From Ectobacillus antri (lineage in GTDB: Bacteria > Bacillota > Bacilli > Bacillales > Bacillaceae_G): a stretch of DNA of 64,000 nt. The notes beneath the pieces were generated by a model. The model was not told the DNA's origin. It saw only the letters and a program-made list of their open reading frames with translations, and searched no databases. Positions 18,072 to 43,815 of this stretch are shown in pieces; position 1 is the first letter of the stretch; every line of letters starts with the position of its first letter. A program made the position numbers and the translations under genes. The DNA lies in assembly GCF_003852715.1 (NCBI RefSeq), contig NZ_RIAV01000013.1, positions 1 to 64,000 on the forward strand. The letters run 5' to 3'.

Positions 18072-18259
18072 CTATATAAGTACAACTAGAAAAACCGACA
18101 TTCTTTTTTGGGTGGGAAAGAAGAACGGGCAATGTATGGTTGCGGTCAGTGCCTAAGAGATACGCGTGTCAAGTCAGAACATATACACGTAGCGAGGCGT
18201 TCTAGCACTGTGATTTTCTTTCTGTTTCTATGTCGAAAAAACTATGTAGACTTATATAG
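18072..18259 (-). repeat. ~188-bp dispersed repeat with terminal inverted repeats, copy 1
   Basis: Starts CTATATAAGTACAAC and ends GTCTACATAG-like sequence into ACTTATATAG; the outer 10 bp form exact terminal inverted repeats. About 90% identical to the copy at 43627-43815 (opposite orientation) and similar to 26752-26934 and 37056-37232. No open frame is shared by the copies, so it is non-coding and MITE-like. It lies directly upstream of the 3D-domain gene, whose ribosome site begins just outside the repeat, so the promoter of that gene lies in or beyond the repeat. Confidence 0.88.
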
Positions 18260-19408: not shown

Positions 19409-20008
19409 TTACTCTACAGGACCAAATAACTGAATGCCGCATGGTACGAAAAGCTTCCATACGTCATGTTCCGGTCCATCAATGGTGGTAAGACGTAGTC
19501 CGTTCAAAAAACTTAAATACGAAATTGCTACAGCCTCAACATGTAATATGCGCAGCTGCCCAAGCTCTTGACCTCTCTTTATTAAAATTCCCATCTTGTT
19601 TTGAAATAACTGAAAAAACTGATTTAAGATTTCAAACTCTCTTTTAAAACGTTCAGGCTGACCAAGCACTTGTTGAAACAGTCTTAAATAAACAGGCTGC
19701 TGAGAAATCAGCAGAACATGCTTTTGTACCAACGCTTCAATTTCTTTCATCGGATTTACTGCATTACTGTCAAAAGACAGCAGTTCCTCTCCTAACTTTT
19801 CAAGTGGTTCTTTTATAGTCGCATAGAAAAGCTCCTCTTTACTTGCGAAATACGTAAATACACTGCCAAATGAAATCCCGGCAGCGTTGGCAACCTTGGC
19901 AATTGTTGTATCATTGTAGCCATGGACTGCAAATAACATAGTTGCTTCTTGCAAAATCTTTTCACGCTTTTTGTGCATCGCTTTCATTTGATCTTCTGAT
20001 AATGCCAT
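19409..20008 (-). CDS. TetR/AcrR-family transcriptional regulator
   Basis: 199 aa. The N-terminal DNA-binding domain is clear: KILQEATMLFAVHGYNDTTIAKVANAAGISFGSVFTYFASKEELFYA (about residues 17-63). The C-terminal ligand domain is unspecific. First gene of a two-regulator operon with the LacI-type gene. A 16-bp perfect dyad 25-40 bp upstream of its start is a likely auto-operator. It lies near an MFS exporter gene on the same strand but is separated from it by the IS607-derived gene; the palindrome before the exporter is of a different sequence type, so regulation of that exporter by this protein is not supported. Confidence 0.88.
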   Translation of the reverse strand: MALSEDQMKAMHKKREKILQEATMLFAVHGYNDTTIAKVANAAGISFGSVFTYFASKEELFYATIKEPLEKLGEELLSFDSNAVNPMKEIEALVQKHVLLISQQPVYLRLFQQVLGQPERFKREFEILNQFFQLFQNKMGILIKRGQELGQLRILHVEAVAISYLSFLNGLRLTTIDGPEHDVWKLFVPCGIQLFGPVE

Positions 20009-20032
20009 TTTACTTTTCCTGCTACTAAAAAC

Positions 20033-20048
20033 ATAGACAAACGTCTAT
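20033..20048. promoter_or_regulatory. Dyad operator upstream of the TetR gene
   Basis: ATAGACAAACGTCTAT: two 6-bp arms around a 4-bp centre, a layout typical of TetR-family operators. It sits 25 bp before the TetR start and immediately beside the right end of the IS607-derived element. Confidence 0.6.
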
Positions 20049-20059
20049 TCTTAGAGTAT

Positions 20060-20166
20060 TCCTGCTTCTACAAACTCGACCTCGCCAATTACTCGCTACT
20101 ATCGTTTGTATAGTTCTCCACAGGCGTAAATTCCGATGTAGCCCACCGTACATATATACAATTTAT
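20060..20166 (-). ncRNA. Candidate TnpB guide RNA (omega-RNA) / IS607 right end
   Basis: Immediately downstream of the tnpB stop on the minus strand is a structured segment containing CGGAATTTACGCCTGTGGAGA and ending near GAAGCAGGAATAC. These patterns recur at the right ends of IS200/IS605 and IS607 elements, where they form the scaffold of the RNA that guides TnpB; the element boundary is set by this resemblance. If transcribed, the guide portion would be the flanking DNA to the left (20033-20059), that is, the TetR operator region. Boundaries are approximate. Confidence 0.45.
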
Positions 20167-21498
20167 TTAAGTTAGTATTGTATATTCTTTTGCTTGTAAA
20201 AGGTTGATAGATGCATTTAAATCTCTATTCATGATGTTTCCGCAATCGCATTCATATATTCGGTCAGATAGCTTTAAATCAACTTTCTTTTGACCGCAAC
20301 ATGAGCACAATTTAGAAAATGGATAGAATCTGTCTACTTGGCGTAATTCAATACCATATTCTTTGCATTTTGCTATTAGCCATGCTTTAAACATATAAAA
20401 ACATTGTTCTGCGACTGATCTAGATAAATGCTTATTTTTCATCATCACTTTTACGTTTAAATCCTCAATTGTGATATACATTGGCTTGGCTTTCACCAAT
20501 TCATTCACAACCCATTTTACATACTCTGTTCGTATGTTTGATAGTCGAACATGTAGCTTTTGTACTCTAAGAATGTTTTTGTTTATATTTGCTCTTTTAG
20601 CAACAGTTTTTTCACCTCTCTTTTTTAGATTTTCGTATTTGCGTGACAAAGAGCGCTGTTCACGTTTTAATTTCTTCTCTAATTTCTTCAACTTTGCTGT
20701 TTTATTAATGTTTTTGTGGACTTTACCATCACTACGAACAGCAAAATCTTTTATGCCTAAGTCGATGCCTAGACCACCTTCATTTAATTTGTTTACATGT
20801 TTTCTTGTATTCACTTCACAAAGGACAGATACAAAATACCTTCCTGCCTGTTGAGAAACAGTTCCACTTTTTACAATCGCATCTTTCGGGATATAACCAT
20901 ACTCTTTTAATTTTATCCAACCAATCGTTGGGATTTTTATTCTGTGCCTTTCTACAGTCCAATCAGTTTTATTGTTCTTAGAGAAATCACATTTGACATT
21001 TTGATTTTTCTTTTTCTTGTAGCTAGGAAATTTAGACAACCCTTTGAAAAATCTATTAAAAGCCTTATCACCATTCATGATGGCTTGCTTAACAGCTTTG
21101 CTAGATACTTCTTTGATCCATTTATCGTATTCTTTTCTCAATCCATATATTCTGCAACTGAAAACATGAATGATAGATATTAAGTCTTGAACAAGTTCTT
21201 CTTGAGGTGACAACTTATCATTGTTAACAACAATGATTTCTACTGCCATCTTGCGAAGAAATCGCTCAAACCAATCATAACCAAACCGAACAAACCTATC
21301 TTTGTGTGCGATAATAATTCGTGAAACTTCACCTTCCGCACATCTATCAATCAACTTGTTCCATTGTTTTCTATTGTAATTTAAGCCACTACCAATATCC
21401 GTAACAATTTCATCAACTATCATTCCTCTTGCATTGGCAAATGTTTTCAAAAACTCAATTTGATTTTCCAAATCATCTTTCTGTCCTTGATTAGACAC
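20167..21498 (-). CDS. In-frame fusion: IS607 serine recombinase (TnpA) - TnpB
   Basis: 443 aa. Residues 1-~122 are the catalytic domain of an IS607-type serine recombinase (SNQGQKDDLENQIEFLK, ITDIGSGLN-like DIGSGLNYNRK, AHKDRFVRFGYDWFERF, LSPQEELVQDLISIIHVFSCRIYGLRK). From ~123 the sequence continues without a break as TnpB (WIKEVSSKAVKQAIMNGDKAFNRFFKG...). TnpB's RuvC residues are intact: D246 (GIDLGIKDF), E345 (ITIEDLN), D426 (NRDLNAS), plus the zinc ribbon C398/C401/C417/C419. Missing are the N-terminal MerR-like domain of TnpA and about the first 60-70 residues of TnpB. The frame is open a further ~7 codons upstream of the GTG, including IYARVS, where the S is the catalytic serine; the GTG start keeps that Ser but loses the preceding Arg. 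It therefore looks like a deletion derivative, not an active transposase. Confidence 0.85.
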   Translation of the reverse strand: MSNQGQKDDLENQIEFLKTFANARGMIVDEIVTDIGSGLNYNRKQWNKLIDRCAEGEVSRIIIAHKDRFVRFGYDWFERFLRKMAVEIIVVNNDKLSPQEELVQDLISIIHVFSCRIYGLRKEYDKWIKEVSSKAVKQAIMNGDKAFNRFFKGLSKFPSYKKKKNQNVKCDFSKNNKTDWTVERHRIKIPTIGWIKLKEYGYIPKDAIVKSGTVSQQAGRYFVSVLCEVNTRKHVNKLNEGGLGIDLGIKDFAVRSDGKVHKNINKTAKLKKLEKKLKREQRSLSRKYENLKKRGEKTVAKRANINKNILRVQKLHVRLSNIRTEYVKWVVNELVKAKPMYITIEDLNVKVMMKNKHLSRSVAEQCFYMFKAWLIAKCKEYGIELRQVDRFYPFSKLCSCCGQKKVDLKLSDRIYECDCGNIMNRDLNASINLLQAKEYTILT

Positions 21499-21521
21499 TC
21501 TGGCGTAAATAAGAGTCTTAC

Positions 21522-22778
21522 CTATACCCCCACTTCAACGATTGACTTCGGTTTCTTTTTTCCCAGTTCCCGTAAAGGTTTTAATGTAGCTGTCAATACG
21601 AGAGCCAATATCATCAAAGCAAGACTAGTAACTGCCAAAACTGTTTGCGGTCCTGCAATGTCAGCAAAAAATGTTCCAACTCCCACTGCAATTGTTCCAA
21701 ATACACTGTGTAACATCCCTAAAAAACCAAATACTCTACCTTGAATAGCAGGTGCGGTTTGCACACGCAAAGCAATGTTAACAAGCAGAGTTGAGACAGC
21801 AAACATAAAGCCAAGTAAAATAATAAACGGGTATACGTAAGAGATATATTCGATTTCCGAAATGCAATAGTAAATGGGCCCAATTAATAAAAAACCGCCA
21901 AAGATCCAATATCCTTTTCGCTGGATTCGTGTATCTAATTTCATAATAACGAGTGACCCCAGAATATAACCGAATGGAATACAAGCTTCTATCAAGCCAA
22001 ACTCCCATCCCTTCGCCTTCCATGTTTGAACAGCTGTTACTTGAATCATCATTAACGCCATTGTAAATGATGATCCTAAAATCGGAAAAAGAATAAGTAC
22101 GGAACGAATGAAAGGTTCTTTTACAAGCAATTGTAAACCTTCCTTAAAATCCTTAAAAAAAGACTTTTTCTCTTGAAGCTTGCCATCATGTTCTACTGCA
22201 AGATGAGATTGTGGAATGACCCCTGCCATCAAAACGAATCCTGCCGATAATATATAGGTACATGTATTTACTAAAAAGGCAGTAAAACTTCCAAACAATC
22301 CAATAAATAACCCGCCAAGAGCCAATCCACTAATACGAGAAATATTATCCATAATTGTAATAGCACCTGTCGCTTTTGACATATTCTCTTTTTCTACTAT
22401 GTTGCTTAATGAGGCTTGAAATGCAGGACCATGGAATAGTCCGATAAAGACTTGCAGTCCAAATAAAACGATGAGAAATGGAATGGATGTAAAGGATGTA
22501 TACATACAAGCTGCTACAACGAAAATGATAGCTGCATTCAGTAAATCACACACCCACATGATGGTACGGCGGTCATAGCGATCAGCAAAGGTTCCTGCCA
22601 CTCCCCCGAATAATACATTAATAGCTAAAACAACCATGAAAAATACAAACATGATTCTAGCGCTTCCTGTCGTTTCTAGCACCCAAAAGTTAATAGCGAT
22701 GGTCGAAAAACTGCTTCCAAGTAACGAAACACCATAGCTTAGGAATAAATAACGAAATATTTTATTTTGAAACAGCAT
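21522..22778 (-). CDS. MFS transporter, multidrug/siderophore-exporter type
   Basis: 418 aa with 12 predicted membrane helices. The cytoplasmic loop 2-3 motif FGGVAGTFADRYDRRTIMW is the MFS signature; FHGPAFQASLSNIV is typical of the MFS_3/EntS-like exporter group. AGGAGGAAC lies just before the ATG. The promoter region contains a 44-bp perfect palindrome that looks like a TetR-type operator. The 3' end is abutted by the truncated IS607 element (the frame of the latter begins ~5 bp after this stop), so the element entered or was deleted right at the end of this gene. Substrate unknown. Confidence 0.88.
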   Translation of the reverse strand: MLFQNKIFRYLFLSYGVSLLGSSFSTIAINFWVLETTGSARIMFVFFMVVLAINVLFGGVAGTFADRYDRRTIMWVCDLLNAAIIFVVAACMYTSFTSIPFLIVLFGLQVFIGLFHGPAFQASLSNIVEKENMSKATGAITIMDNISRISGLALGGLFIGLFGSFTAFLVNTCTYILSAGFVLMAGVIPQSHLAVEHDGKLQEKKSFFKDFKEGLQLLVKEPFIRSVLILFPILGSSFTMALMMIQVTAVQTWKAKGWEFGLIEACIPFGYILGSLVIMKLDTRIQRKGYWIFGGFLLIGPIYYCISEIEYISYVYPFIILLGFMFAVSTLLVNIALRVQTAPAIQGRVFGFLGMLHSVFGTIAVGVGTFFADIAGPQTVLAVTSLALMILALVLTATLKPLRELGKKKPKSIVEVGV

Positions 22779-22937: not shown

Positions 22938-23045
22938 TTCTTATCATGAGAGGCGGAGGGACTGGCCCGACGATGCCTCAGCAACCCCTGAAATTTAGGA
23001 AGGTGCTAATTCCTGCAGAGCAAAAGCTCTGAGAGATAAGAGGTC
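22938..23045 (+). promoter_or_regulatory. SAM-I (S-box) riboswitch
   Basis: The conserved S-box core is present in order: CTTATCATGAGAGGCGGAGG, ACTGGCCCGACGATGCC, TCAGCAACCCC, AAGGTGCTAATTCCTGCAG, and the closing GAGAGATAAGAGG. P1 pairs CTTATC (22940-22945) with GATAAG (23035-23040). The 3' half of P1 belongs to ATAAGAGGTC (23036-23045), which is perfectly complementary to GACCTCTTAT (23061-23070), giving an antiterminator when SAM is absent. Binding of SAM would free 23061-23070 for the terminator. It controls the racemase gene that follows. Confidence 0.95.
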
Positions 23046-23124: not shown

Positions 23125-23826
23125 ATGAAAACAATTGGCATGATTGGTGGATTAAGTTGGGAGTCGACATCACTGTACAGTACGTATCTAAACGAATTTG
23201 CTCAAAAAGCATGCTCTCATTGCGCTCCCCTAGTAATTCAAGGGATGGATTTTACTGAAGTGACTCATTGGTTAGAACGGGGTGATGATGAGTCGCTCAC
23301 AACTGCACTCATTGAAACAGCACAGCAAGTGGAAGAGATGGGAGCTGACTGTTTGCTGCTTTGTTCAAATACCGTCCATATTTTTGCAAACGAAGTCGCT
23401 GAAGCTATATCAATTCCACTTCTTCATATTAGTGATGCTAGCGCCGAAGCGATCCGTATGCAATCTATAAACAAAATTGGCGTACTCGGAACAAAGCACA
23501 CACTCAAAAAAGGTTTTTATCTTGAAAAATTAGAATCTCATGGTTTACAAGCGCTTTGTCCAAGTTCAGAAGAGTGCACCTGGATGCACAACATTATCAT
23601 GAATGAACTCAGTCAAGGAATTTTATCTCCTAAAACAAAAGCCGACTTTCAAAATATCATTCAAAACTTAATTGTACAAGGTGCGGAGGGCATTTTATTG
23701 GCCTGCACTGAAATTCCTCTTCTAATTACGCAAGAAGACGTGTCAGTACCATTGTTTGATACAGCGTACTTGCATGCCCAGCAAGCCATTTCATTTGCGC
23801 TGCAAAAAGAAGAGGCCGTGACATAA
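23125..23826 (+). CDS. Aspartate/glutamate-type amino acid racemase under S-box control
   Basis: 233 aa. N-terminus MKTIGMIGGLSWESTSLYSTYLN is typical of the Asp/Glu racemase family. Both catalytic cysteines are present: C80 in LLLCSNTVH and C194 in LLACTEIPLL. Enzymes of this cofactor-independent family interconvert L- and D-amino acids. E. coli YgeA, a relative, is a broad-specificity racemase that acts well on homoserine. The SAM riboswitch directly upstream links this gene to methionine or sulfur supply, so a role with D-methionine, homoserine or a related compound is a reasonable inference. AAGGAGG lies 8 nt before the ATG. The stop codon lies at the edge of repeat copy B. Confidence 0.9.
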   Translation: MKTIGMIGGLSWESTSLYSTYLNEFAQKACSHCAPLVIQGMDFTEVTHWLERGDDESLTTALIETAQQVEEMGADCLLLCSNTVHIFANEVAEAISIPLLHISDASAEAIRMQSINKIGVLGTKHTLKKGFYLEKLESHGLQALCPSSEECTWMHNIIMNELSQGILSPKTKADFQNIIQNLIVQGAEGILLACTEIPLLITQEDVSVPLFDTAYLHAQQAISFALQKEEAVT

Positions 23827-43626: not shown

Positions 43627-43815
43627 CTATATAAGTCCACATGATTTGTTCGACATAGAAATAACAAGAAAGTCACAGCTTCAGAACGCCTCGCTACGTG
43701 TGTATGTTCTTACTTGACACGTGTATCTCTTAGGCACTGACCGCAACCATGCATTTCCCCTTCTTCTTTCCCACCCCAAAAAAGAATGTCGGTTTTTATA
43801 GTTGTACTTATATAG
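43627..43815 (+). repeat. ~188-bp dispersed repeat, copy 3
   Basis: CTATATAAGTCCAC at one end and TTGTACTTATATAG at the other give exact 10-bp terminal inverted repeats. About 90% identical to copy 1. It sits in the divergent promoter region of the siderophore system, between the permease operon and the Fur boxes of the binding-protein gene. Confidence 0.88.

What the first reader, a model, noticed from the sequence alone, without database searches (positions are those of the whole stretch)
20167..21530. In-frame fusion of an IS607 serine recombinase to TnpB with an intact RuvC site
One 443-residue frame joins the catalytic domain of an IS607 TnpA (through YGLRK) directly to TnpB from WIKEVSSKAVKQ on. 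RuvC residues D246, E345, D426 and the zinc ribbon are intact, while TnpA's DNA-binding domain and TnpB's first ~60-70 residues are gone. In normal IS607 elements the two proteins are separate. An in-frame deletion at a short shared sequence (LRK/KEY) explains its origin, but the long open frame with no further decay suggests either a recent event or retention.
Basis: partly seen in the sequence, partly recalled or inferred. Interest (0 to 1): 0.75.

Follow-up and report, generated by a model that had tools for sequence, protein, structure and literature searches.

The report
Deletion-scarred IS607 transposon remnant
An already crippled copy of a common bacterial jumping gene lost 221 bases, which happened to join its two protein genes in one reading frame; the one close relative that can be compared still has them apart, so this looks like decay and not a new enzyme.

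Summary
Retention is not supported. Relative G003 (same genus) carries the element at the same site, between the same MFS and TetR genes, with tnpA and tnpB separate. Against it the window lacks 221 bp at a 4-bp AAAA repeat: TnpA's last 11 residues and TnpB's first 62. TnpA's DNA-binding domain was lost earlier, an event G003 shares. A second copy in the own genome keeps a 384-aa TnpB frame. The fused copy has five private tnpB substitutions, all amino-acid changing, one at a site that is serine in 27 of 27 related TnpBs, one at the counterpart of ISFba1 Y117. No other match covers both halves in 19 family genomes or, among strong matches, in 397 genomes of the order. Verdict: a private and very probably non-functional deletion remnant.

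The parts
20167..21498 (-). Fused frame, 443 aa: TnpA catalytic-domain remnant (aa 1-122) joined to TnpB lacking its first 62 residues
21133..21136 (-). Deletion junction: AAAA microhomology where 221 bp present in G003 are absent
21137..21521 (-). 5'-truncated tnpA; homology to E. panaciterrae tnpA starts about codon 58; DNA-binding domain and left end missing; truncation shared with G003
20167..21132 (-). tnpB remnant (TnpB residues 64-384) with five private amino-acid changes: Y112D, P114S, G292V, T313A, S335F in TnpB numbering
20059..20124 (-). RAGATH-18 RNA, the guide-RNA scaffold of IS607 TnpBs; 58.0 bits here against 61.3 in G003 and in copy C6; one private substitution at 20072
   Evidence: PMC11061315 (abstract and passages)
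20019..20166 (-). Right end of the element, including the RAGATH-18 RNA; identity with the second genomic copy stops at 20019
21522..22778 (-). Flanking MFS transporter (named by eye, no family search run); 418 of 418 residues identical in G003; its stop codon lies at the tnpA truncation point
19409..20008 (-). Flanking TetR-type regulator (named by eye, no family search run), on the other side of the element in both genomes

Best explanation
This is a dead IS607-family element. An IS607 transposon with a serine transposase (tnpA), tnpB and a RAGATH-18 guide RNA came to lie between an MFS and a TetR gene in the lineage shared by the window's species and its relative G003 (by descent or by later exchange of this stretch). 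An older deletion, shared by both, removed the left end and the TnpA DNA-binding domain, so the copy could no longer move on its own (shown: the truncation is shared; inferred: loss of mobility). Later, in the window's lineage, a 221-bp deletion between two AAAA tracts removed the end of tnpA, the tnpB start codon and the first 62 TnpB codons; because the two genes are in different frames, this length happened to bring them into one frame (shown by alignment; which of the two states is older is inferred from the separate genes in G003, in copy C6 and in other IS607 elements). The fused frame is very unlikely to make a working recombinase or nuclease (inferred from what is missing), and its later substitutions look like unconstrained drift. 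The RuvC residues survive because the event is recent (inferred).
For: Same locus, same neighbours, separate genes in G003. One 221-bp length difference with 4-bp microhomology. Second copy in the own genome has a full 384-aa tnpB frame. TnpA truncation identical in G003; the 199-aa E. panaciterrae TnpA starts about 58 residues earlier, and with it as query the matches in G000 and G003 begin at residue 51 or later. Fusion-private changes: 5 in tnpB, all amino-acid changing, plus 1 in the RAGATH-18 RNA. S335 is serine in 27 of 27 and Y112 tyrosine in 23 of 26 TnpBs with a residue there, among 29 rows under 95% identity. Y112 aligns with ISFba1 Y117, whose Y117A change reduced cleavage, and the deleted segment holds the equivalents of N61 and N62 in REC1 (PMC11061315 passages). 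In 19 family genomes no other match covers both halves; likewise among 18 matches at E <= 1e-80 in 397 order genomes, at most 4 candidates scored per genome. The other 22 of 23 IS607 TnpA hits at E <= 1e-20 in 397 genomes, at most 8 candidates scored per genome, have open frames of at most 247 aa.
Against: The frame is still open over 443 codons, with all three RuvC residues and the zinc ribbon present. Of the 24 ISFba1 residues named in the passages seen, 21 have their counterparts in the retained part and not at a substituted site; only N61 and N62 are deleted and Y117 changed. Five changing to zero silent substitutions fits neutrality (about a 0.25 chance, my arithmetic from the 23% silent fraction) but does not prove it; the private C6 and G003 changes are also mostly amino-acid changing (5 of 6 and 2 of 3). 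Two of the five changed sites are not conserved (P114 3 of 15, T313 9 of 28). Only one genome with the orthologous locus was available, and the order-wide searches were capped.
Confidence: 0.93

Rival explanations
1. The fusion is retained and functional: a recombinase-nuclease chimera, or an RNA-guided binder or repressor acting on the neighbouring TetR or MFS genes.
For: Open 443-codon frame, RuvC residues intact; RAGATH-18 RNA still present beside it; frame lies downstream of the MFS gene on the same strand; counterparts of most named RNA-contacting residues of ISFba1 are retained.
Against: Absent from G003 at the same site and not found elsewhere. Lacks TnpB residues 1-62, including REC1 residues that contact the TAM, and carries Y112D and S335F. 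From its GTG start the TnpA part lacks the strand and arginine before the catalytic serine (their roles recalled). No evident ribosome-binding site directly before the GTG (read by eye).
Confidence: 0.03
2. The junction is an assembly artefact joining two IS607 copies.
For: The genome is a 74-contig draft and the second copy lies at the very start of contig C6, 119 bp before the two copies diverge, so this repeat did disturb the assembly.
Against: Only 4 bp are shared at the junction, far below usual assembly word lengths (word lengths recalled). After the junction the sequence carries the bases of G003 and not of C6 at 6 of 6 C6-private positions, and the flanks on both sides are those of G003. 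A contig starting exactly at a shared 119-mer suggests that the assembler saw both branches (inference).
Confidence: 0.04

Closest known systems
IS607-family transposon with RAGATH-18-guided TnpB (e.g. ISFba1; structure 8iaz)
   Same: Serine transposase gene followed by tnpB and a RAGATH-18 RNA at the right end; TnpB half aligns to 8iaz chain residues 67-382
   Different: Left end, TnpA DNA-binding domain, tnpA 3' end and TnpB residues 1-62 missing; the two genes fused in frame
The orthologous IS607 remnant in G003
   Same: Same insertion site, same 5' truncation of tnpA, 99-100% identical DNA
   Different: tnpA and tnpB separate; tnpB a full 384-aa frame
TldR-type nuclease-dead TnpB repressors (recalled, not searched)
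   Same: TnpB-derived protein next to host genes, beside a guide RNA
   Different: Those have lost RuvC residues; here RuvC residues are intact and the N-terminal part is lost instead

Membership tests
IS607-family element | Serine-recombinase TnpA catalytic domain of the IS607 type | tested here: met
   NF033518 166 bits, cut-off 110
IS607-family element | N-terminal DNA-binding domain of TnpA | tested here: not met
   Missing; truncated at about codon 58 in both G000 and G003
IS607-family element | tnpB with RAGATH-18 RNA downstream | tested here: met
IS607-family element | Two separate genes, tnpA and tnpB | tested here: not met
   One frame here; separate in G003 and E. panaciterrae, and tnpB starts with its own ATG in C6
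Active RNA-guided TnpB nuclease | RuvC acidic triad and zinc ribbon | tested here: met
   D246, E345, D426, CSCCG and CDCG
Active RNA-guided TnpB nuclease | N-terminal TAM-interacting and REC1 parts | tested here: not met
   TnpB residues 1-62 deleted, with equivalents of ISFba1 N61/N62
Active RNA-guided TnpB nuclease | Guide-RNA-dependent DNA cleavage | not testable with these tools
   needs an assay
TldR-like repressor | Loss of RuvC catalytic residues with the rest of the protein kept | tested here: not met
   Catalytic residues kept, N-terminal part lost; definition recalled

The most novel reading that the evidence does not exclude
The fused protein is made by readthrough or reinitiation behind the MFS gene, still holds the RAGATH-18 RNA through its REC2, RuvC and RBD contacts, and acts as a guide-RNA sink or weak repressor at the MFS-TetR locus.
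Probability: 0.03. Interest if true: 0.7.

Novelty: already known. Interest (0 to 1): 0.1.

Why it matters
It shows how an intact-looking catalytic site and a long open frame can survive in a dead transposon for a while after a chance in-frame deletion. Such fusions will turn up in genome scans for new TnpB or Cas12-like architectures, and the check that settles them is the orthologous locus in a close relative, not the open frame.

Tried and rejected
Retained fusion: rejected on the orthologous locus, lack of recurrence and the substitutions. Assembly artefact: judged unlikely, cannot be closed without reads. Statistical test of selection on the fused copy: five substitutions are too few; zero silent of five has about a 0.25 chance under neutrality (my arithmetic from the 23% silent fraction), so I rely on which sites changed and not on the ratio.

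Searches with no gain: phage records no match; plasmid records one match, an Exiguobacterium record with two places, the best being a 112-base piece of a TnpB gene at 78%; exact junction 27-mer in viral contigs 0 matches. I tried to find the upstream part of copy C6 through G003's version of that region, without success: 4.3 kb of G003 there matches G000 only in 84 bases of C6 itself. Literature: 'TnpA-TnpB fusion' 0 papers; in two wider searches I saw listings only (2 papers; 7 papers), and no title or abstract start there reports a natural TnpA-TnpB fusion. Passages of two of the papers listed: one describes working TnpBs shortened at the C-terminus (PMC10951260); in the other, a mutational scan of TnpB, stop codons were depleted except after residue 376 and most zinc-finger mutations were depleted (PMC11844463). 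Neither passage set tells of an N-terminal truncation. No structure prediction was run: a fold of the fused chain would not decide between the readings.

Full report
What is there. On the minus strand, 20167-21498 is a single 443-aa frame starting with GTG. Its first 122 or so residues match IS607 transposase (NF033518, 166 bits, cut-off 110) and residues 123-435 match the RNA-guided TnpB family (253 bits, cut-off 100); the narrower full-length IS200_TnpB and IS607_TnpB models stay below their cut-offs. Downstream, at 20059-20124 on the same strand, lies a RAGATH-18 RNA (58.0 bits, gathering score 44.9). RAGATH-18-derived RNAs are the guide RNAs of IS607 TnpBs (PMC11061315, abstract and passages seen). 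The element sits between an MFS transporter gene (21522-22778) and a TetR-type gene (19409-20008), all on the minus strand (both named by eye).

Where it lies. The held genus has 4 genomes, the own one included.

The relative settles the origin. G003, a one-contig genome of the same genus, has the MFS gene, a 5'-truncated tnpA frame (133 aa from the same GTG), a separate 384-aa tnpB and the TetR gene in the same order. tnpA and tnpB overlap there as ATGA and so are in different frames. Aligned to G003, the window lacks 221 bp; five breakpoint positions are equivalent, giving a 4-bp AAAA microhomology. The loss removes 11 residues from the TnpA end and TnpB residues 1-62, and joins the frames. 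A second copy in the own genome, at the start of contig C6, also keeps tnpB as a 384-aa frame. Of the three other genus genomes only G003 has the MFS gene and the TetR gene (where the only other match is a 37-base piece in G001 that falls in the element's right end), so this rests on one relative.

The DNA-binding domain was lost earlier. The E. panaciterrae TnpA is 199 aa with the N-terminal part. In both G000 and G003 homology begins at about its codon 58, right at the stop codon of the MFS gene. So the fusion arose in a copy that was already crippled. In IS607 TnpAs the DNA-binding domain is N-terminal (PMC6188088, abstract and passages). Read from its GTG, the fused protein starts one residue before the serine of the ARVS motif and lacks the preceding strand; its match to the TnpA structure 6dgc begins at chain residue 10 (the roles of the serine and arginine of ARVS are recalled from serine recombinases).

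Drift since the split. Comparing fused copy, G003 and C6: six positions are private to the fused copy, five in tnpB, all amino-acid changing (Y112D, P114S, G292V, T313A, S335F in TnpB numbering), and one in the RAGATH-18 RNA. G003 has three private positions (two changing), C6 six (five changing). The 392 bp of the tnpA side are identical to G003. In 29 related TnpB rows under 95% identity (of 34 distinct rows; the other five are G003 three times, C6 and the fusion itself; five of the 29 hold stops and are counted), S335 is serine in 27 of 27 with a residue there, Y112 tyrosine in 23 of 26, G292 glycine in 22 of 29, T313 threonine in 9 of 28, P114 proline in 3 of 15. About 18% of random changing mutations would hit sites conserved at 80% or more; here 2 of 5 do. 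This is suggestive, not a formal test.

What the missing parts mean. TnpB aligns to structure 8iaz; with an offset of three, 24 of 24 residues that the ISFba1 paper names in the passages seen agree with that chain. Y112 corresponds to Y117, whose alanine mutant had reduced activity, and the deleted segment holds the equivalents of N61 and N62 of REC1, which contact the backbone of the TAM (passages). S335 falls between the equivalents of W336 and K341, which contact the RNA. The other 21 named residues have counterparts in the retained part, so some RNA binding cannot be excluded. Loss of nuclease function is therefore very likely, but inferred.

Recurrence. With the fused protein as query against 19 family genomes (17 with a match, all candidates scored), only the window's own locus covers both halves: other matches that run through the TnpB half begin no earlier than residue 107, and matches that begin in the TnpA half end no later than residue 153, those two (G003 and C6) running through two stops. 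In 397 genomes of the order, 18 matches at E <= 1e-80 in 11 genomes were listed, at most 4 candidates scored per genome; apart from the window's own, none starts before residue 117. IS607 TnpA hits at E <= 1e-20 (23 matches in 16 of 397 genomes, at most 8 candidates scored per genome) have open frames of at most 247 aa other than the window's 455. These searches sample one genome per species; other strains of the window's own species were not available.

Verdict. A real but ordinary deletion remnant of an IS607 element.

Noticed in passing
window 21001-22500 against G003: Identity to G003 is 100% over 1.5 kb (tnpA part and most of the MFS gene), while the other well-covered 500-base steps of the aligned region range from about 90 to 99.6%; this may be a recent recombination or transfer tract between the two species.
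   Followed up: partly
L007:2157-2222 (G000 contig C67): A solo IS607 right end with a RAGATH-18 RNA (61.3 bits), 86% identical over about 175 bp to the window's element; the search with the fused protein lists no match on that contig. An orphan guide RNA that a TnpB elsewhere might use.
   Followed up: partly
L006:1-119 (G000 contig C6 start): Contig C6 starts inside tnpA, 119 bp before it diverges from the window's copy, and I found no contig holding the upstream part; the left side of this copy is unresolved.
   Followed up: partly
window 22938-23042: SAM riboswitch (101 bits) on the plus strand upstream of a gene at 23125-23826 that resembles an aspartate/glutamate racemase (by eye).
   Followed up: no
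window 18073-18258 and 43628-43814: Two copies in opposite orientation, 90% and 88% identical to the same 185-bp stretch of G003; no Rfam family reaches its threshold there. Possibly a small mobile or intergenic repeat.
   Followed up: no
L017:3399-4448 (E. panaciterrae): tnpB of this full-length-TnpA relative in the genus is itself cut short at 349 aa, with the rest of the match continuing in another frame, so this element is decaying in more than one place in the genus.
   Followed up: no
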